Below, piece after piece: positions 1 to 7,538 of a DNA stretch of 7,538 bases. Source of the DNA: CAVPRW01 sp046727435 [NCBI: bacterium]. GTDB taxonomy: Bacteria; Tectomicrobia; Entotheonellia; J063. The notes below the pieces were generated by a model. The model was not told where the DNA came from and did not search any database. It saw nothing but the letters and a program-made list of their open reading frames with translations. Every line of letters starts with the position of its first letter. Position 1 is the stretch's first letter. Location of the stretch: positions 1-7,538 of the forward strand of contig JBKPCR010000305.1 in NCBI GenBank assembly GCA_046727435.1. The letters are read 5' to 3'. Made by a program: the position numbers and the translations under genes.

Positions 1-137
1 CGGAGCGGACCTTTGCCTGGTTCCAGAAGAAGTATCGCCGCCTGGTGGTGCGCTGGGAACGCCTTGCAGCTTGCTTTGCGGCATTTTTGGCCCTGGCAAT
101 TATTCATCTGTGGGTGCATAGGCTATTAGTGGGATAG
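1..137 (+). CDS. IS5-type transposase, C-terminal fragment (cut by window edge)
   Basis: An open frame enters from the left edge (first full codon at base 3) and gives 44 residues ending at TAG 135-137. It begins ERTFAWFQKKYRRL and continues with RWERLAAC and a hydrophobic FLALAIIHLWVHRLL tail. The ERTFAW...YRRL signature is the C-terminal end of the RNase H-like catalytic domain in IS5-type (DDE_Tnp_1) transposases, and the Glu of ERTFAW is normally the third catalytic acidic residue. The rest of the gene and the left end of the element lie outside the window. The right inverted repeat is probably just downstream (about 141-160, where the complement reads GAAGGATGTCGCACGAATC, loosely like IS5-type ends), but it cannot be confirmed without the left end. 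The family call is from motif recognition. Confidence 0.75.
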   Translation, partial: ERTFAWFQKKYRRLVVRWERLAACFAAFLALAIIHLWVHRLLVG

Positions 138-402
138 ATTCGTGCGACATCCTTCTCTGTCGCTCGTTGGTAACTCCGCATCTTGCCGAGCTGCGGATGT
201 CAAGGATTGCGCTATCCCGTCGTCATCCGATAGCATCAACGACGCGGATGCCCTCACCTCTCCCACCACCCCGCGACGTGGCCTCTCATGACCGACATCG
301 TGGCCCACACCATCAGCACCCATCGCGACACAGACGGCCAGCTCTTGCGCCACGTGATCAATAGCGGTGAGGTCTACCCCGAACGGCTCACCGCCGCTGG
401 CC

Positions 403-939: not shown

Positions 940-1500
940 ATGGCGACCTTACCCAAATATCTTACCCAAGACGAGCTGAAGCGCTTCTTTGCCGGGATTG
1001 AGTCCCCTCCTGACAAGGCGCACTTCGGCCTGATTTATCATTACGGCCTGCGCGTGGGCGAGGCGCTCATGCTCACTGTCGACGATGTGAACTTCAAAAA
1101 CCATCGGATCACCATCCGGCGATTGAAGAACGGACTAGGTGGAGAAAAGCCGCTGTGGCGGCACACGGCCAAACTTGTCCGGGCATATTTACGGGAGCGC
1201 CGAGACGTCGGCCCCTACCTCTTCACCGGCCGCAAGGGACCCCTGCAGAAGCGACAGGTGCAGCAGCTCTTTAACAATTACGCCAAGGCAGCCGGCATCC
1301 AAGAGCGATCGATCCATGCTCTGCGCCATTCGATGGCCGTGCACCTCCTGGAAGCTGGCCGTGGGATTGAGTATGTCGCCGACCACCTCGGCCACAAGAA
1401 CATTCAGAACACCTGTATCTACGCGCAGATCACCAATCCCCTGCGCGAGCAGGTCTTCCGCGAGCTCGAGCAGCATCCGAGGATTGTGCGGCTTGCTTAA
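940..1500 (+). CDS. Catalytic-domain-only tyrosine recombinase (186 aa)
   Basis: This protein should cut and rejoin DNA through a covalent 3'-phosphotyrosine intermediate. All expected catalytic residues are visible: Arg38 in HYGLRVGEAL, Lys63 in the beta-hairpin RRLKNG, His126 and Arg129 in HALRHSMAVHLLEAG, His152 in DHLGHKNI, and Tyr161 in NTCIYAQI. At 186 residues it lacks the SAM-like core-binding domain of XerC/D or phage integrases (about 300 residues), as in short FimB/FimE-like recombinases. The ATG at 940 opens MATLPKYLTQDELKRF, the usual first helix of the catalytic domain. The upstream in-frame extension passes through terminator DNA and is unlikely to be translated. The ribosome binding site is weak (AGGTAAAAG lies too far upstream). 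A terminator and an 11-bp direct repeat precede it. Its substrate is unknown; inversion of a nearby promoter or excision of a small element are possible. Confidence 0.85.
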   Translation: MATLPKYLTQDELKRFFAGIESPPDKAHFGLIYHYGLRVGEALMLTVDDVNFKNHRITIRRLKNGLGGEKPLWRHTAKLVRAYLRERRDVGPYLFTGRKGPLQKRQVQQLFNNYAKAAGIQERSIHALRHSMAVHLLEAGRGIEYVADHLGHKNIQNTCIYAQITNPLREQVFRELEQHPRIVRLA

Positions 1501-1658
1501 CCATTTCCTCTAAGAGGACCCATAGGACTGAACCTACGATAGAGATCTTTGGCGATCCATCAGGACTGACTGAACGGTACTACCGCTGCCTGGACTGTGA
1601 CGTCGGGCACGTAGCAGGAATGTGGAGGAACACATTCAAGCATGTCGGGAGAATGCTC
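1501..1658 (+). other. Open stretch encoding a Cys-x2-Cys peptide in frame with the membrane protein's first helix
   Basis: Upstream of ATG 1659, and in the same frame as the MESHILAAII helix, the DNA stays open back to the end of the recombinase. It reads GDPSGLTERYYRCLDCDVGH at about 1551-1610, then MWRNTFKHVGRML. RYYRCLDCDVGH looks like half of a zinc-binding knuckle in front of a membrane anchor. No ATG, GTG or TTG precedes it in frame between the recombinase stop and ATG 1620 (GCAGGA just upstream). It may be the remains of a longer N-terminus, or chance. Nothing else is evident in this spacer. Confidence 0.3.
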
Positions 1659-2164
1659 ATGGAATCGCACATACTCGCCGCAATCATCACAGGGATATTT
1701 GGGTTCGCTGGAACACTTGGGGGGTTTTGTTGACAGATTACCTGGCCCGTCGCCGAGGAAGCCCGCTGCCCACCGCGCCTGAACGCCGTCTTGAAGAAGC
1801 AGCTTCTAGCAGTAGCCCGTGGGGGGTCGCAATTCCCCCTATCCTATTCTTTGCAGGCATTTTTCTAGGATTTATGACTGGACCCCTGTTTGACATTATC
1901 TGGGGTTTTACTATCTTTAGTTTCGTTCTGCTTATGATAGTTTCCCTATTGTTAGCCCGGCATCATCGTCGACGTCCACATAGCTTCTGGCTCTATCAAC
2001 TTGAGGTGCTAGTCTTGTGGGCAGGATATACATTCGGATCATTAATGATCGGAAGGGTGAGCATATTTACCTTTGTAATGCTAATGATGGGTTTATGGCT
2101 GGTTTGTGCTGTCGTGGGCGGCCTTCTTATTGATCGTCAGCAAAGAATGCTGAAAAATTCCTGA
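1659..2164 (+). CDS. Multi-pass membrane protein, apparently frameshifted at a G6 run
   Basis: The C-terminal 145 or so residues read openly to TGA 2162-2164 and contain about four membrane helices (AIPPILFFAGIFLGF, IIWGFTIFSFVLLMIVSLLL, LEVLVLWAGYTFGSLMIG, FTFVMLMMGLWLVCAVVGGLL) with a basic loop ARHHRRRPHS. The 5' part of that frame, opened by GTG 1622, is not helix-like. In a second frame an ATG at 1659, preceded by GGGAG with 7-8 nt spacing, encodes MESHILAAIITGIFGFAGTL, a good first helix, but ends at TGA 1731-1733. Adding one G to the G6 run at 1719-1724 joins them as ...GTLGGVLLTDYLARR, a 168-residue five-helix protein. I recognise no family. Either the sequence lacks one G, the gene is mutated, or the run is a slippage site. 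A gene caller would report 1622-2164. Confidence 0.6.
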
Positions 2165-2452: not shown

Positions 2453-3760
2453 CTAGTTGGCACCACCCTCTTGAGTCAACACTCTGTATGATTTCTCGTC
2501 GGCGACCGCCCGATCTAAATCGCCCAAATTTCGTGCGGCCATAGCGCGGTATTGGTATGCACGGGCGTATTCAGGCGCAATGTCAATGGCTCTGGAAAAG
2601 TCGTCGAAAGCCTTCTGGAATCGTCCAAGCTCTCTAAGAGCAATTCCTCGATTGTACCAGGTAGGAGCGTGCCCCGGCTCAAGGCTTATTGCCTGAGAGA
2701 AGTCAGCAACAGCAGAATCGAGTTCCCCTCGCCTGCCATGAACAGCTCCTCGGCAGCGCCAACTCGCGGCAATTTTGTCGCCGCGAGCAACCGCTCGGTC
2801 AGCCTCGGCCAACGCACGATCCCAGTCGTTAGAGTCCAGGAAAGACATCGCGCAGGAACAGTGCTCTTCTGGTTTTGTAAACATTGACAGGACATGTAAT
2901 CCAAGCTTTCCTGAAATTTCTTCCTCAAACTCAAGCGGTGACACGTTCCTAAAGCCAATTGGACGTAGCAATCCCCCTTTGGGTGTAAATGCGACTCCGT
3001 ATCGGCCTTGAAGAAAGTAGACTGCAAGCCCATTACTGCCTGACGTTGGATCAGGCATGAGATTGAAGCCATATCCCCCTTCTGCCGCCGTGCCGAAAGG
3101 AACCACAAATTCTTGAGGCATGAGATCGAATCGAATTGGATGCGTCAGCACCATCGTATATTCCATATATTGGAAGCGCCCTTGATGCAAGCCGACAGGA
3201 ACGGCAAATCCTCCGACTTCGGGGACGCTGCTGTCTTCTATTACATAGCGTAATGCGGTCATGCGTTTCTCGTAGTCAGGGTCGGTTTCGCCCCTTGGTC
3301 CCTCCGGGGTCTGTAAGGCTTGGATCTCGAACGTGTTCAGCGGGATATCGGGAGGTGTCAGTGCACCAGTTGCGTAGCCTTGAAAGTGTGAGAACGCTGA
3401 TCCCAGCCAGGAGGTCACGACCGTTTTGGCTTGACCATTCGTAATTTCAATTAAGCGTGGCTGGGGGTCGGCTGCAGCAATGAGAAAATCAGTGGATTGG
3501 GATGATTGTTCGTGAATACGCAGAAGTGTTGCCGCGACTTCGTCCGCGGCCGCGAGCGGCTGTTTTTCGACGGCGGATAAGCCGACTTTTGCCCAATGCT
3601 TAATACCAGCAAAGGACACACAGAGAGAATCATTCAGTATCCTGGATTTAATCACACCTTGTACGAGTCGCTGGCGAGGCTTGCGGACGGGGTTCGTAAG
3701 GTGGGTATCGCTCAGAATCGTAATGATACCGTTTATTTGACGGGCGACGGCAAGGCTCAT
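2453..3760 (-). CDS. Proteasome-like (Ntn-hydrolase fold) domain fused to TPR repeats (435 aa)
   Basis: The start MSLAVARQINGIITILSDT is chosen because AGGAG lies 6 nt before this ATG on the minus strand. A 45-codon upstream extension in the same frame (to 3895) has no good ribosome binding site. The N-terminus has the layout of 20S/HslV-type proteasome subunits: a short strand, a glycine turn, ILSDT, then GVIKSRILNDSLCVSFAG, and further on FLIAAADPQPRLIEITNG. Counting from Ser2 as residue 1, Asp falls at 17 (the proteasome Asp17 position) and a Lys at 37 (near Lys33), so Ser could be an N-terminal nucleophile after Met removal. This is inference; many such folds are inactive. A middle region with HQGRFQYMEYTMV and GTAAEGGYGF follows. 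Three TPRs fill about residues 331-364, 365-398 and 399-432 (WYNRGIALRELGRFQKAFDD), with a partial one at 301-330. TPRs suggest protein binding. No signal peptide is seen, so it is likely cytoplasmic. The gene is monocistronic. Confidence 0.75.
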   Translation of the reverse strand: MSLAVARQINGIITILSDTHLTNPVRKPRQRLVQGVIKSRILNDSLCVSFAGIKHWAKVGLSAVEKQPLAAADEVAATLLRIHEQSSQSTDFLIAAADPQPRLIEITNGQAKTVVTSWLGSAFSHFQGYATGALTPPDIPLNTFEIQALQTPEGPRGETDPDYEKRMTALRYVIEDSSVPEVGGFAVPVGLHQGRFQYMEYTMVLTHPIRFDLMPQEFVVPFGTAAEGGYGFNLMPDPTSGSNGLAVYFLQGRYGVAFTPKGGLLRPIGFRNVSPLEFEEEISGKLGLHVLSMFTKPEEHCSCAMSFLDSNDWDRALAEADRAVARGDKIAASWRCRGAVHGRRGELDSAVADFSQAISLEPGHAPTWYNRGIALRELGRFQKAFDDFSRAIDIAPEYARAYQYRAMAARNLGDLDRAVADEKSYRVLTQEGGAN

Positions 3761-3773
3761 GAGGTACTCCTCA
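3760..3773 (-). promoter_or_regulatory. Short hairpin containing the ribosome binding site of the 2453-3760 gene
   Basis: On the minus strand TGAGG-AGTA-CCTCA forms a perfect 5-bp stem with a 4-nt loop. It holds the AGGAG ribosome binding site, and its last paired base is the A of the ATG start. It is small, but well placed to restrain initiation. Confidence 0.35.
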
Positions 3774-3962
3774 GTAAATCGGCTTAACTCCTCACTGGCA
3801 CAATGGATATTGGGACATGCTTTATACAAGGGAAGAAATACCTCAAGAAAGGCGAAATTTTCAAGGATGAAAGGAAATGGGTAATTCTCTTTCATCTTTG
3901 AGCATCATAGCCTTGTGCACAGACCGCAAAGAGTTTCCTCCGACACCCATGGAACCACAACA

Positions 3963-4219: not shown

Positions 4220-5146
4220 GTGCCGGCGCTTGTCATGTCAGCCGGCGAGCACGGTGCCTATCGGTTCTTAGAGTTTTTTGCGGCCCACCTCAGAAATCCC
4301 AACACCCGCGCCGCCTACTTTCGGGACGCGTGCGCGTTTTTCCTGTGGTGCGAACGGCGCAAGATTCGGGGGTTGTCGGCGATCCGCTCACATCATGTAG
4401 CGGGATACATCGAGCGATTGGGCAACACCCACGCGCCCCCCTCGGTCAAGCAACATTTGGCCGCGATCCGGATGTTCTTTGATTGGCTGGTCATCGGGCA
4501 GATCGTGCCGAAGAATCCCGCCAGCGCGGTGCGGGGGCCCACCTATGTGGTCAAGAAAGTCAAGACGCCGGTGCTCTTGGGCGAAGAAGCCCGCGCACTG
4601 CTCGACAGCATCAAGACCGACACGCTGGTGCGACTACGGGATCGCGCCTTCATTTCCCTCCTGGTCTACACCTTTGCGCGGGTGTCGGCCGCGGTGCAGA
4701 TGAATGGCGAGGACGTCTATACTCAGGGCAAGCGCCTGTGGGTGCGGCTACACGAAAAAGGCGGCAAGGAGCATACGCTCCCCTGTCACCACGAGCTTGA
4801 AGGCATTTTGGAGGCCTACCGGGACGCAATTGGGATTGGTCAGGAGAAAGGCACACCGCTGTTTCGATCGGCGATCGTGCGAACCGGACGGTTAACGGAT
4901 AAACGCCTGCACCGCGTAGACGGGTTCCGCATGATCAAGCGCCGGGCCCGCGACGCCGGCATTCTCTCCCCCATCGGCTGCCATACGTTTCGGGCCACAG
5001 GAATCACGCAGTATTTGTTACACGGCGGCAAGCTCGAGCATGCACAACACATGGCGGCGCATGAGTCGTCCCGCACCACGGGGCTCTATGACCGAAGGAA
5101 AGACGAGATCACGCTTGATGAAGTAGAACGAATTATTTTGACGTAA
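4220..5146 (+). CDS. XerC/D-like tyrosine recombinase (308 aa)
   Basis: This is a two-domain site-specific recombinase. Residues about 10-108 form the SAM-like core-binding domain (RFLEFFAAHLRNPNTRAAYF, then SVKQHLAAIRMFFDWLV and NPASAVRGP). Residues about 115-308 are the catalytic domain. Catalytic residues are Arg154 (YTFARVSAAVQM; the usual GLR is FAR here), Lys183 or nearby Lys180 in HEKGGKEHTLP, His255 and Arg258 in CHTFRATGITQYLLHGG, His281 in MAAHESSRTTGLYDRR, and Tyr290. All are present, so the core should be active. The GTG at 4220 (or ATG 4235) is only the first usable start after an upstream in-frame TGA; neither has a good ribosome binding site. The natural N-terminus may lie in another frame at 4149-4212. 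It is unrelated in architecture to the recombinase at 940. It may come from an integron-like, phage or integrative element whose cargo is not identifiable here. Confidence 0.85.
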   Translation: MPALVMSAGEHGAYRFLEFFAAHLRNPNTRAAYFRDACAFFLWCERRKIRGLSAIRSHHVAGYIERLGNTHAPPSVKQHLAAIRMFFDWLVIGQIVPKNPASAVRGPTYVVKKVKTPVLLGEEARALLDSIKTDTLVRLRDRAFISLLVYTFARVSAAVQMNGEDVYTQGKRLWVRLHEKGGKEHTLPCHHELEGILEAYRDAIGIGQEKGTPLFRSAIVRTGRLTDKRLHRVDGFRMIKRRARDAGILSPIGCHTFRATGITQYLLHGGKLEHAQHMAAHESSRTTGLYDRRKDEITLDEVERIILT

Positions 5147-5803: not shown

Positions 5804-5860
5804 GATGTCCCTTACGATAGATGAGCTCTGGCAAAGTTCATGCTATCGAGGGAGGACATC
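5804..5860 (+). promoter_or_regulatory. Long nested leader hairpin sequestering the transposase ribosome binding site
   Basis: Three nested complementary segments line up: GATGTCC (5804-5810) with GGACATC (5854-5860), CGATAG (5815-5820) with CTATCG (5843-5848), and ATGA (5821-5824) with TCAT (5838-5841), closing a 13-nt loop. The GGAGG ribosome binding site (5851-5855) lies inside the descending strand and ends partly paired. In IS10 and IS50 such leader structures form only in transcripts arriving from outside and block transposase translation. The same role here is inferred. Confidence 0.6.
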
Positions 5861-5862
5861 CC

Positions 5863-7209
5863 ATGCCACCCCTGCCCGAAGCGATCATACTGGTCTTGGC
5901 GCCATTTGCACCACTCTTTTCGGAGCGTGTCTGGCGGCATGCTCAGGTCCTACTGCTGGGGGCGATGCTCACCCCCGAGACTCGCACCGTGACTGCGGCC
6001 TTGGAGGCGATGGGGTTGGCGGCGGAACGCCGCTTCACGAACGACCATCGCGTCTTGAACCGCACCACGTGGTCGGCCCGCCAGGGCAGTCGGATTCTGC
6101 TCGGCTTGCTGATCACGCTGCTGGTGCCCCCGGGCGCAACCATCGTGCTCGGAGCCGACGACACCGTGGAACGCCGCACCGGGCGCAAGATCACAGCCAA
6201 AGGGTGCTATCGCGATGCCGTGCGCTCGACCAAGAAGCACGTCATCCGCTGCTTTGGCTTGAAGTGGGTGTCGATGATGCTCTTGGTCCCAGTGCCCTGG
6301 AGCCGACGGGTGTGGGCGTTGCCTTTTCTGACGGCATTGTGTTGGCCCGCGCAGACCTCCCAACGCCGACGGCACAAAACCAGCGTGGATTGGGTACGGC
6401 AGATGATGAAACAAGTGCGCCGCTGGCTGCCAGGCCGCTGGCTGGTCTTGGTCGTCGATGGCGGCTTCGCCGCGGTGTCGCTGGCGCTGGCTTGCGTCAC
6501 ACAGCACGTCACGATGGTGTCGCGGTTGCGCTGGGATGCCGCACTGTATCACCCCCCAGCGCCGCAGCCCAAGGGCAAACGCGGTCCCAAACCCTTGAAG
6601 GGCAATCGCCAGCGCAGCTTGCAGGAGTGGGCGGAACGCGTGGATACCCCTTGGGAGACCGTGGAGCTGGACTGGTACGGGGGAAAGCGCAGACAGCTCT
6701 GGGTCTTCTCGCATACTGCCCTGTGGTACACCCCGAAGTGGCCTCCTGTGGCGATCCGCTCCGTCGTGGTGGCGGACCCGGAGGGGAAGCTGCGCATGGA
6801 GGCTTTCTTTTGTACCGATCTGGAGGCGACGCCTGTAGCGATCTTGCCATGGGTCGTGATGCGCTGGTTGGTGGAGGTGACCTGTGAAGAGGGCCGAGCC
6901 CATCTCGGATTGGAGACGCAGCGGCAGTGGTCGGACAACGCTATTGCCCGCACCACTCCCGTCCTCTTGGCCTTGTTCTCGCTCGTCACCATCCTGGCCC
7001 TGAGGTTGAGTTCAGGCGGGCAAATCCCGGTGGCGGCGACCGCTTGGTATCACAAAGCTGAGCCAACCTTCGCGGACTGTTTGGCCTTGGTACGTCGGCA
7101 TCTCTGGCGCGCTCGCTATTTGGTGAACTCTACGCCCGAGGCAGAGTGCATGCAATTTCCTCAGGAGGCTCTTGACCTCTTGATCCACGGTGTCCTGTTA
7201 GCAGCCTGA
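5863..7209 (+). CDS. IS701-like DDE transposase, intact (448 aa)
   Basis: This enzyme cuts and joins DNA to move the surrounding element. The ATG at 5863 is preceded by GGAGG with 7 nt spacing. Residues 1-80 are the helical N-terminus with NDHRVLNRTTWSARQGSRIL, typical of IS701/DDE_5-type transposases. The catalytic acids are likely Asp99 or Asp100 in LGADDTVERRTGRKI, Asp199 in LVVDGGFAAVSL, and Glu338 in RWLVEVTCEEGRAHLGL, followed by the usual ETQRQWSDNAIARTTP. CYRDAVRS and the WALPFLTAL strand also fit. The length is normal and no stops or frameshifts are seen, so it may still be active. It lies within 14-bp inverted repeats and behind a strong leader hairpin. DDE catalysis is clear; the family assignment is from memory of the motif set. 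Confidence 0.85.
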   Translation: MPPLPEAIILVLAPFAPLFSERVWRHAQVLLLGAMLTPETRTVTAALEAMGLAAERRFTNDHRVLNRTTWSARQGSRILLGLLITLLVPPGATIVLGADDTVERRTGRKITAKGCYRDAVRSTKKHVIRCFGLKWVSMMLLVPVPWSRRVWALPFLTALCWPAQTSQRRRHKTSVDWVRQMMKQVRRWLPGRWLVLVVDGGFAAVSLALACVTQHVTMVSRLRWDAALYHPPAPQPKGKRGPKPLKGNRQRSLQEWAERVDTPWETVELDWYGGKRRQLWVFSHTALWYTPKWPPVAIRSVVVADPEGKLRMEAFFCTDLEATPVAILPWVVMRWLVEVTCEEGRAHLGLETQRQWSDNAIARTTPVLLALFSLVTILALRLSSGGQIPVAATAWYHKAEPTFADCLALVRRHLWRARYLVNSTPEAECMQFPQEALDLLIHGVLLAA

Positions 7210-7320: not shown

Positions 7321-7538
7321 ATGATCACTTGTAAAAATTGCCACACTACTCACACGGTAAAAAATGCATTTGTTCGCGGTAAGCAACGCTATAAGTGCCA
7401 TGCATGTGGTTAGAACTTTGTCCTTGGTGATGCGCGTCATTCGCACGAGACAGAGATCAAGAAGGCCTTAGCGATCATGTTGTCCTCGCTTGGAAAATCC
7501 TCATGCGGCTTTTTAGGAAAACTCTTTGGGGTATCACG
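7321..7538 (+). pseudogene. IS1-like zinc-ribbon transposase with in-frame TAG (cut by window edge)
   Basis: The ATG at 7321 follows AGGAGGGAGG closely. The first 30 residues start MITCKNCHTTHTVKNAFVRG and end QRYKCHACG, a Cys-x2-Cys ... Cys-x2-Cys zinc ribbon (Cys4, Cys7, Cys26, Cys29) typical of the N-terminus (InsA-like) of IS1-family transposases, where it contacts the inverted repeats. TAG at 7411-7413 stands where relatives usually have Tyr or Arg (CGYNFV). The same frame then continues openly to the window end as NFVLGDARHSHETEIKKALA. A single TAT or TAC to TAG change would explain it, so the copy is probably dead unless the stop is read through. The C-terminal DDE part lies outside the window. 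Confidence 0.65.

What the first reader, a model, noticed from the sequence alone, without database searches (positions are those of the whole stretch)
2453..3760. Proteasome-fold (Ntn-like) domain fused to TPR repeats, with a possible Ser nucleophile
Seen: MSLAVARQINGIITILSDT and GVIKSRILNDSLCVSFAG follow the strand order of HslV/20S subunits. With Met removed, Ser is residue 1, Asp is at 17 and Lys at 37, close to the Thr1/Asp17/Lys33 arrangement. The C-terminal 135 residues are TPRs. Known: Ntn-hydrolase proteasome relatives are normally stand-alone ring subunits. Inference: a stand-alone, possibly self-targeting or scaffolded hydrolase, or an inactive sensor using the fold, with TPRs recruiting the partner.
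Basis: partly seen in the sequence, partly recalled or inferred. Interest (0 to 1): 0.6.

Follow-up and report, generated by a model that had tools for sequence, protein, structure and literature searches.

The report
TPR-tailed single-chain proteasome-like enzyme
The gene encodes a predicted enzyme built on the same fold and catalytic residues as a proteasome subunit, joined to a chain of protein-binding repeats, which makes it an uncommon and still untested variant of a known enzyme family.

Summary
Confirmed: minus-strand gene 3760..2453 encodes 435 residues, a proteasome-type Ntn domain plus a C-terminal TPR array. The domain has no Pfam or NCBIfam match above cut-off, but 18 relatives were found. 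In 18 aligned members (window included) the residue after the start codon is Thr (13) or Ser (5); Asp17 and Lys37 are kept in 18 of 18. A 19th, read by eye, agrees. Seven members came from a profile, without the motif being demanded. Profile comparison with HslV/20S-type sequences scores 41.4; the best of 200 shuffled decoys 17.3. The AlphaFold2 domain model (pTM 0.81) matches a 20S beta subunit at Z 19.4, the alignment starting at model residue 2 and Thr1. In 11 of 18 no in-frame start lies upstream, so no propeptide. TPRs were detected in three members, all with Ser1. Best reading: a propeptide-free Ntn hydrolase or ligase whose TPRs recruit a partner. Fold and triad are well-supported predictions; activity, substrate, partner and oligomeric state are untested. 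A defence link was looked for and is not shown.

The parts
2453..3760 (-). coding sequence, 435 aa plus stop: Ntn (proteasome-like) domain, beta extension, TPR array
   Evidence: translation; relatives have a start codon at the same place
3766..3771 (-). Shine-Dalgarno-like AGGAGT, 5 nt before the ATG at 3760
   Evidence: supports start at 3760 rather than 3895
3755..3757 (-). Ser codon AGC, predicted nucleophile (residue 1 after Met removal)
   Evidence: Thr 13 / Ser 5 of 18; structural alignment to 20S beta begins at this residue and Thr1
3707..3709 (-). Asp codon, residue 17 after Met removal
   Evidence: 18 of 18; demanded by the search pattern in the pattern-derived members
3647..3649 (-). 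Lys codon, residue 37 after Met removal (Lys33 equivalent)
   Evidence: 18 of 18; not demanded by the search pattern
3605..3607 (-). Gly codon, residue 51 after Met removal (Gly47 / oxyanion-hole position)
   Evidence: hhalign puts FAG on the FAG of HslV; Gly in 12, Asn in 4, Ser in 2 of 18
3140..3757 (-). proteasome-fold core, residues 2-207 of the frame
   Evidence: AlphaFold2 model and VIA-align 2 ranges ending at 203-219 on 20S chains
2879..3133 (-). extension beyond the 20S core, residues 210-294 (four strands, a helix and an end strand; 216-228 under pLDDT 50)
   Evidence: conserved A and F positions in the family
2471..2863 (-). TPR array, residues 300-430, three clear repeats and a doubtful first one
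   Evidence: Pfam TPR families; Z 17.6 to a designed TPR; repeat positions from my own profile, trained on these repeats

Best explanation
A propeptide-free Ntn enzyme of the proteasome-like family, carrying its own recognition module. Methionine aminopeptidase removes Met, exposing Ser1; Lys37 activates the Ser hydroxyl, Asp17 orients Lys37, and the acyl-enzyme is released by water (protease/amidase) or by another amine (ligase). The C-terminal TPR superhelix holds a partner or substrate protein and so supplies specificity. Shown by computation: fold, triad conservation, start position, TPRs. Inferred: Met removal, activity, the recruiting role of the TPRs. Unknown: substrate and oligomeric state; I think a small, ring-free form the likelier.
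For: Thr/Ser at residue 1, Asp17 and Lys37 in 18 of 18 aligned members, including 6 that a profile found without the motif being demanded; a seventh, L095, agrees by eye. hhalign against 12 HslV/20S beta/BPH-like/Anbu-like sequences: E 1.8e-5, residue 1 on Thr1; 0 of 200 decoys reach its score. Domain model pTM 0.81; Z 19.4, 3.3 A over 176 residues to T. acidophilum 20S beta, alignment starting at model residue 2 and chain residue 1. A TPR-fused relative, L019, sits at the PF00227 cut-off of 22.4 bits (22.2, 22.8). No upstream in-frame ATG, GTG or TTG in 11 of 18. A Thr1Ser proteasome is active though less efficient, and Lys33/Asp17 act as described (PMC4792962, passages).
Against: No activity is shown. 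The window protein itself matches no proteasome family model. The oxyanion-hole Gly is Asn or Ser in 6 of 18, and the position that I read as Ser129 of the proteasome is Asp in 14 of 18 (the window keeps Ser). The models rest on 11 sequences and are weak at 23-30, 141-147, 202-210 and 216-228. TPRs were detected in only 3 members, so they cannot be essential to the family's chemistry. No specific neighbour gene recurs, so no partner is suggested by context.
Confidence: 0.7

Rival explanations
1. Inactive proteasome-fold sensor or scaffold: the fold binds a ligand or peptide and the TPRs relay it, without catalysis.
For: 20S alpha subunits are enzymatically inactive users of the fold (PMC8665760); the oxyanion Gly is replaced in 6 of 18 members.
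Against: Thr/Ser1 directly after the start codon, Asp17 and Lys37 kept in 18 of 18 although the relatives are 17-31% identical to the window domain, and GTG and TTG starts keep the same register; an inactive lineage should lose these. In pattern-derived members Asp17 and the residue-1 codon class were demanded, so the free evidence is Lys37 there and all three in the profile-found members.
Confidence: 0.12
2. Ring or barrel protease like HslV or a split ring like Anbu, with the TPRs projecting outwards as an adaptor or gate.
For: Helices H1-H4 of the core are all predicted; [quoted passage not shown]
Against: 31 residues lie between H3 (123-131) and H4 (163-175), a place where Fuchs et al. say insertions could prevent double rings; an 85-residue extension and TPRs add bulk; none of the window ORFs scanned is an AAA+ ATPase. 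Assembly itself was not tested.
Confidence: 0.15
3. Effector or sensor of an antiphage or mobile-element conflict system, with a Ntn protease in the place that caspase-like or trypsin-like proteases hold elsewhere (the last is recalled, from no call).
For: Rare, scattered distribution; the window gene sits among tyrosine recombinases and a transposase; one relative lies about 430 bp downstream of an Avs2 (5e-300), another near bSEFIR (1.5e-44) and a NB-ARC-TPR protein, another in an island with Abi_alpha and PDC-S05.
Against: Control: arbitrary regions of the same genomes also hit PADLOC models, among them a Mza set (16 family loci, 111 ORFs; 12 control loci, 100 ORFs), so no enrichment is shown. 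No specific neighbour recurs in 188 ORFs of 16 loci. Of the window proteins given to PADLOC (this protein and the 1622-2164 ORF) only a generic TPR model answered (E 1.4e-4); the recombinases and transposase were not given to it.
Confidence: 0.15

Closest known systems
20S proteasome beta subunit / HslV
   Same: Predicted fold order, nucleophile position, Asp17 and Lys
   Different: No propeptide possible in 11 of 18 members; extra extension and TPRs; the window protein does not match PF00227; no ring shown
Proteasome-like family of Fuchs, Alva and Lupas 2021 (22 new subfamilies; DAH and RPC have unassigned C-terminal domains, PMI-2 to PMI-6 have H3/H4 insertions)
   Same: Conserved core, Thr1/Ser1-Asp17-Lys33, no propeptide outside beta and HslV, an H3/H4 insertion, a C-terminal extra domain
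   Different: The main text never uses the word tetratricopeptide or a word starting with TPR; the paper's sequences are not held here, so identity with one subfamily could not be tested
Connectase (monomeric archaeal ligase)
   Same: Works-like model: proteasome-fold enzyme acting outside a ring (PMC8665760)
   Different: No evidence for ligation here; connectase lacks H1/H2, which are predicted here
Anbu
   Same: Thr after Met and a SDT motif at 16-18 in the one sequence compared, which I take for Anbu (L068)
   Different: Single-sequence profile match very weak (E 0.057); Anbu's C-terminal coiled-coil helix replaced by beta extension and TPRs

Membership tests
Proteasome-like family (Fuchs et al. 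2021) | Conserved beta-sheet core with flanking helices H1-H4 | tested here: met
   AlphaFold2 strand/helix order and Z 19.4 to 20S beta; a prediction, not a solved structure
Proteasome-like family (Fuchs et al. 2021) | Thr1 or Ser1 after Met | tested here: met
   13 Thr, 5 Ser of 18; L095 Ser by eye
Proteasome-like family (Fuchs et al. 2021) | Asp17 and Lys33 equivalents | tested here: met
   18 of 18 each
Proteasome-like family (Fuchs et al. 2021) | Gly47 (oxyanion hole) | tested here: inconclusive
   Gly in the window and 12 of 18 members in all, Asn in 4, Ser in 2
Pfam PF00227 Proteasome | Score at or above 22.4 bits | tested here: not met
   Window protein: no match listed up to E 1. Relative L019: 22.2 bits, 22.8 in the genome search
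HslV or 20S beta proper | Propeptide (present in most of them) | tested here: not met
   No upstream in-frame start in 11 of 18; in the window two upstream in-frame starts exist but the Shine-Dalgarno favours 3760
HslV or 20S beta proper | Ring assembly | not testable with these tools
   No assembly prediction was made
A named subfamily (DAH, PMI and so on) | Clustering with its sequences | not testable with these tools
   Sequence sets of the paper are not held
TPR protein | Pfam TPR repeats above cut-off | tested here: met
   TPR_1 71.5 bits against 27.8

The most novel reading that the evidence does not exclude
A mobile-element-borne conflict enzyme in which a Ser-type proteasome-fold protease or ligase is fused to its own TPR recognition array, a Ntn counterpart of TPR-linked caspase-like proteases, acting outside any ring on a TPR-selected protein.
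Probability: 0.15. Interest if true: 0.8.

Novelty: new variant of a known kind. Interest (0 to 1): 0.5.

Why it matters
It adds to the proteasome-like family an architecture in which a recognition module is in the same chain as the catalytic domain. If active, it would be a small system for asking how proteasome-fold enzymes work without rings, and whether Ser is a workable natural nucleophile in this fold. It is also a ready substrate-recruiting enzyme scaffold.

Tried and rejected
Upstream start at 3895: rejected because of the Shine-Dalgarno at 3760 and the register of relatives.

Searches that found no relative: genome contigs and viral contigs with the window domain, viral contigs with the two-sequence alignment, phages with the window domain and with the Rhodococcus protein, plasmids with the Rhodococcus protein beyond itself, viral contigs with a motif pattern and with two relatives. 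One search used a pattern that I had spaced wrongly (shown), so its zero says nothing. One weak plasmid hit (E 8e-3) opened the family.

Pattern scan: 25 loci; 10 were used as members. Nine reach E 1e-3 with the window domain (L005, L009, L010, L013, L014, L017, L019, L025, L026); L020 does so only with the Rhodococcus protein (1.8e-4). The other 15 were dropped: some start alike (L002, L008, L015, L021, L023) but are cut, stop early or did not reach E 1e-3; the rest look like chance by eye.

Ser1 and TPR: Pfam was run on 9 members. TPRs in window, L014, L019 (all Ser); none in L026, L017 (Ser) or L001, L051 (the L037 protein), L010, L005 (Thr). My own repeat profile, trained on the three, gave nothing better than E 0.19 (L026) in the other tails. 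L095 (Ser) has no such tail by length. L039, L041, L055 were not checked. The tree of 18 groups Ser rows (2 changes, shuffled mean 4.5, 1 of 500 as low) but not as one clade, and is poorly resolved with long branches; L095 came later.

Defence enrichment: looked for, not shown. The control regions were fixed, arbitrary places; of 15 asked for, 14 came and 12 were used, two being too short; the plasmid record L001 had no control. The tool lists only 25 of 53 and of 68 families, so the counts are incomplete.

Nearest known subfamily: HslV set E 1.5e-4; single sequences HslV 1.3e-4 and 0.0034, 20S beta 0.0064, BPH-like 0.038, Anbu-like 0.057: too weak to name one. A second Rhodococcus proteasome subunit (L067) was left out of the comparison set.

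Fold search of viral models: 8 matches at E 1e-3 or better, none of them named as a proteasome or protease (one is named a TPR protein); not pursued. No Rfam match in the window; promoter scan at chance level, no terminator found. The domain's one Pfam line, ParD_like at E 0.01 (16.2 bits, cut-off 23), was taken for chance.

Literature: the papers listed by searches (20 of 41; 15 of 22; 2; 1; 4) show by title and start of abstract no TPR-fused proteasome homologue; most subscription papers are not held.

Full report
The gene. The finding lies on the minus strand. Frame 3760..2456 encodes 435 residues beginning MSLAVARQINGIITILSDTHLT. A longer frame starts at 3895, but the ATG at 3760 has AGGAGT 5 nt upstream, and all 17 aligned relatives have a start codon at the matching place.

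Known-family searches. The 299-residue N-terminal part has no match above cut-off in Pfam (only ParD_like, E 0.01, below cut-off) or NCBIfam, none in PADLOC and none in the PDB by sequence, and a weak phage-family match at residues 3-54 (phrog_17392, E 1e-3). The C-terminal part is TPR. No whole genome is held for the window, so its organism is unknown.

Relatives. tblastn on plasmids gave one hit, in Rhodococcus qingshengii (E 8e-3; 4e-10 in a pairwise comparison), a 272-residue protein starting MTLIVARIHEDKITAVSDTKIT, with Thr at the nucleophile position and no TPR. From the motif common to both I scanned genome contigs (84,980 species genomes by the tool's description). Of 25 loci, 10 were taken as relatives, 9 by blastp with the window domain and L020 with the Rhodococcus protein. 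Three are about 31% identical over the domain: Planctomycetota (L019), Bacteroidota (L014), Polaromonas (L026). A profile of 12 members then found L037, L038, L039, L040, L041, L055 and L095 without the motif being demanded.

Conservation. In 18 aligned members residue 1 is Thr (13) or Ser (5); Asp17 18 of 18; Lys37 18 of 18; Gly119 18 of 18; Gly51 12 of 18. The relatives are 17-31% identical to the window domain. In the pattern-derived members Asp17 and a codon of the class Ser/Thr/Cys/Arg/Trp at residue 1 were demanded by the pattern, so the free evidence there is Lys37 and Gly119. For the 6 aligned profile members, and L095 by eye, all positions were free, and they hold. L038 starts with GTG, L039 and L095 with TTG, in the same register. 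In 11 of 18 there is no in-frame ATG, GTG or TTG upstream, so no propeptide; in the window there are two, and in L095 five.

Homology to the proteasome. hhalign of the family against 12 HslV, 20S beta, BPH-like and Anbu-like sequences taken from carrier genomes (the last two names are my own reading of the sequences) gives E 1.8e-5 over 63 columns, residue 1 on Thr1, Asp on Asp17, Lys on the Lys33 column. Of 200 column-shuffled decoys the best scores 17.3 against 41.4; the reversed alignment 12.4. Against single sequences the match is weaker (E 1.3e-4 to 0.057). L019 lies at the PF00227 cut-off (22.2 and 22.8 bits, cut-off 22.4).

Structure. The full model (11 sequences, pLDDT 70.7, pTM 0.59) and the domain model (pLDDT 76.9, pTM 0.81) show S1-S4, H1-H2, S5-S8, H3-H4 and two further strands in proteasome order. 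Foldseek finds 956 PDB chains at E 1e-3 or better; all 50 listed are proteasome chains. VIA-align 2, a second look at Foldseek's own matches: Z 19.4, 3.3 A, 176 residues, T. acidophilum 20S beta, model 2..206 on chain 1..197. Residues 210-294 lie beyond the aligned 20S core and are an extension, partly of low confidence. Residues 293-433 match designed TPRs and MamA at Z 16-18.

Distribution and context. The family is rare and scattered. Genomes with a match, the seed genome counted: 1 of 299 (phylum of the Polaromonas), 2 of 246 (phylum of the planctomycete), 5 of 198 (family of the Bradyrhizobium L005), 1 of 200 (family of the Polaromonas), 1 of 198 (family of the Tateyamaria), 1 of 28 (genus of L013's genome), 2 of 296 (phylum of the L014 genome), 1 of 169 (its order), 1 of 166 (order of the planctomycete), 2 of 114 (order of the L055 genome). 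No specific neighbour recurs: among 188 neighbour ORFs of 16 loci only 4 cross-locus blastp pairs appear at E 1e-5, three of them among what look like ABC-type ATPases and one recombinase-like (names by eye). The window gene lies between a small recombinase and a plasmid-type tyrosine recombinase (relatives in 443 plasmid records) and near an IS701 transposase. Some relatives sit near defence genes: Avs2, bSEFIR with a NB-ARC-TPR protein, Abi_alpha with PDC-S05, NOV_C, and a HEPN match below its cut-off. With the same ORF caller, arbitrary regions of the same genomes also gave defence hits, including a Mza set. I therefore do not claim enrichment.

Mechanism. By analogy with the proteasome (Huber et al. 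2016, PMC4792962, passages seen), Lys37 would deprotonate Ser1 and Asp17 would orient the Lys. The same paper reports that a Thr1Ser proteasome is active but slower, so Ser is workable. Release by water or by another amine cannot be told apart from sequence. The TPR array probably binds a partner or substrate; this is inference. TPR tails occur in the window, a Bacteroidota and a Planctomycetota member, so the fusion is not an assembly error of the window.

Comparison. Fuchs, Alva and Lupas 2021 (PMC8665760; main text parts 1-5 of 6 read, and a term search) define the proteasome-like family by these features and expect many more members. Domain and triad place this protein in that family; the PF00227 model does not reach it. 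The word tetratricopeptide is absent from their text. Whether the domain equals one of their subfamilies could not be tested. Verdict: new variant of a known kind.

Noticed in passing
window 4220-5146 (+): Tyrosine recombinase of a type found in 443 plasmid records (376 with at least 80% of the query covered; best listed 60.7% identity), suggesting plasmid or integrative-element DNA.
   Followed up: partly
window 940-1500 (+): Second, short tyrosine recombinase catalytic domain (XerA-type E 5.6e-37, below its cut-off; Phage_integrase 111 bits) without a matched N-terminal DNA-binding part.
   Followed up: no
window 5821-7209 (+): IS701-family transposase, above cut-off (305 against 170 bits); relatives in 126 plasmid records.
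   Followed up: partly
window 7321-7538 (+): Cys-rich start of what looks like an IS1/IS1595-type gene, with an in-frame stop (read by eye; the family name is recalled).
   Followed up: no
window 1622-2164 (+): Small membrane-protein-like ORF converging on the finding; only a weak conjugal-transfer match (TIGR03750, 20.4 bits, cut-off 70.75).
   Followed up: no
L048:2431-6756 (+): Avs2-type STAND protein (1441 aa, E 5e-300) ending about 430 bp upstream of a family member (start at 7190), same strand, in a MAG titled Rhodococcus.
   Followed up: partly
L047:10095-11066 (-) and 11529-14618 (+): bSEFIR protein and a SMEK-NB-ARC-TPR protein upstream of the 'Bathyoplasma' member.
   Followed up: partly
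L045:4967-7582: Abi_alpha, NYN and PDC-S05 genes beside the Tateyamaria member, with an integrase-like gene at 13789-15129 (by eye); island-like.
   Followed up: partly
L053:6923-7933 (+); L043:7044-7808 (+); L042:9200-9883 (+): Adjacent same-strand genes: LprI with a HEPN_RiboL-PSP match below cut-off, 30 bp upstream; NOV_C 187 bp upstream; ATE_C (aminoacyl-protein transferase type) 118 bp downstream of a TPR-fused member.
   Followed up: partly
L051:6652-8745 (-): Member of 697 aa in the planctomycete's phylum with a tail of about 400 residues that no Pfam model matches at E 1.
   Followed up: no
L002, L008, L015, L021, L023: Further proteins with a like N-terminal motif that are cut, stop early or are too distant to align; possibly other proteasome-like subfamilies.
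   Followed up: no
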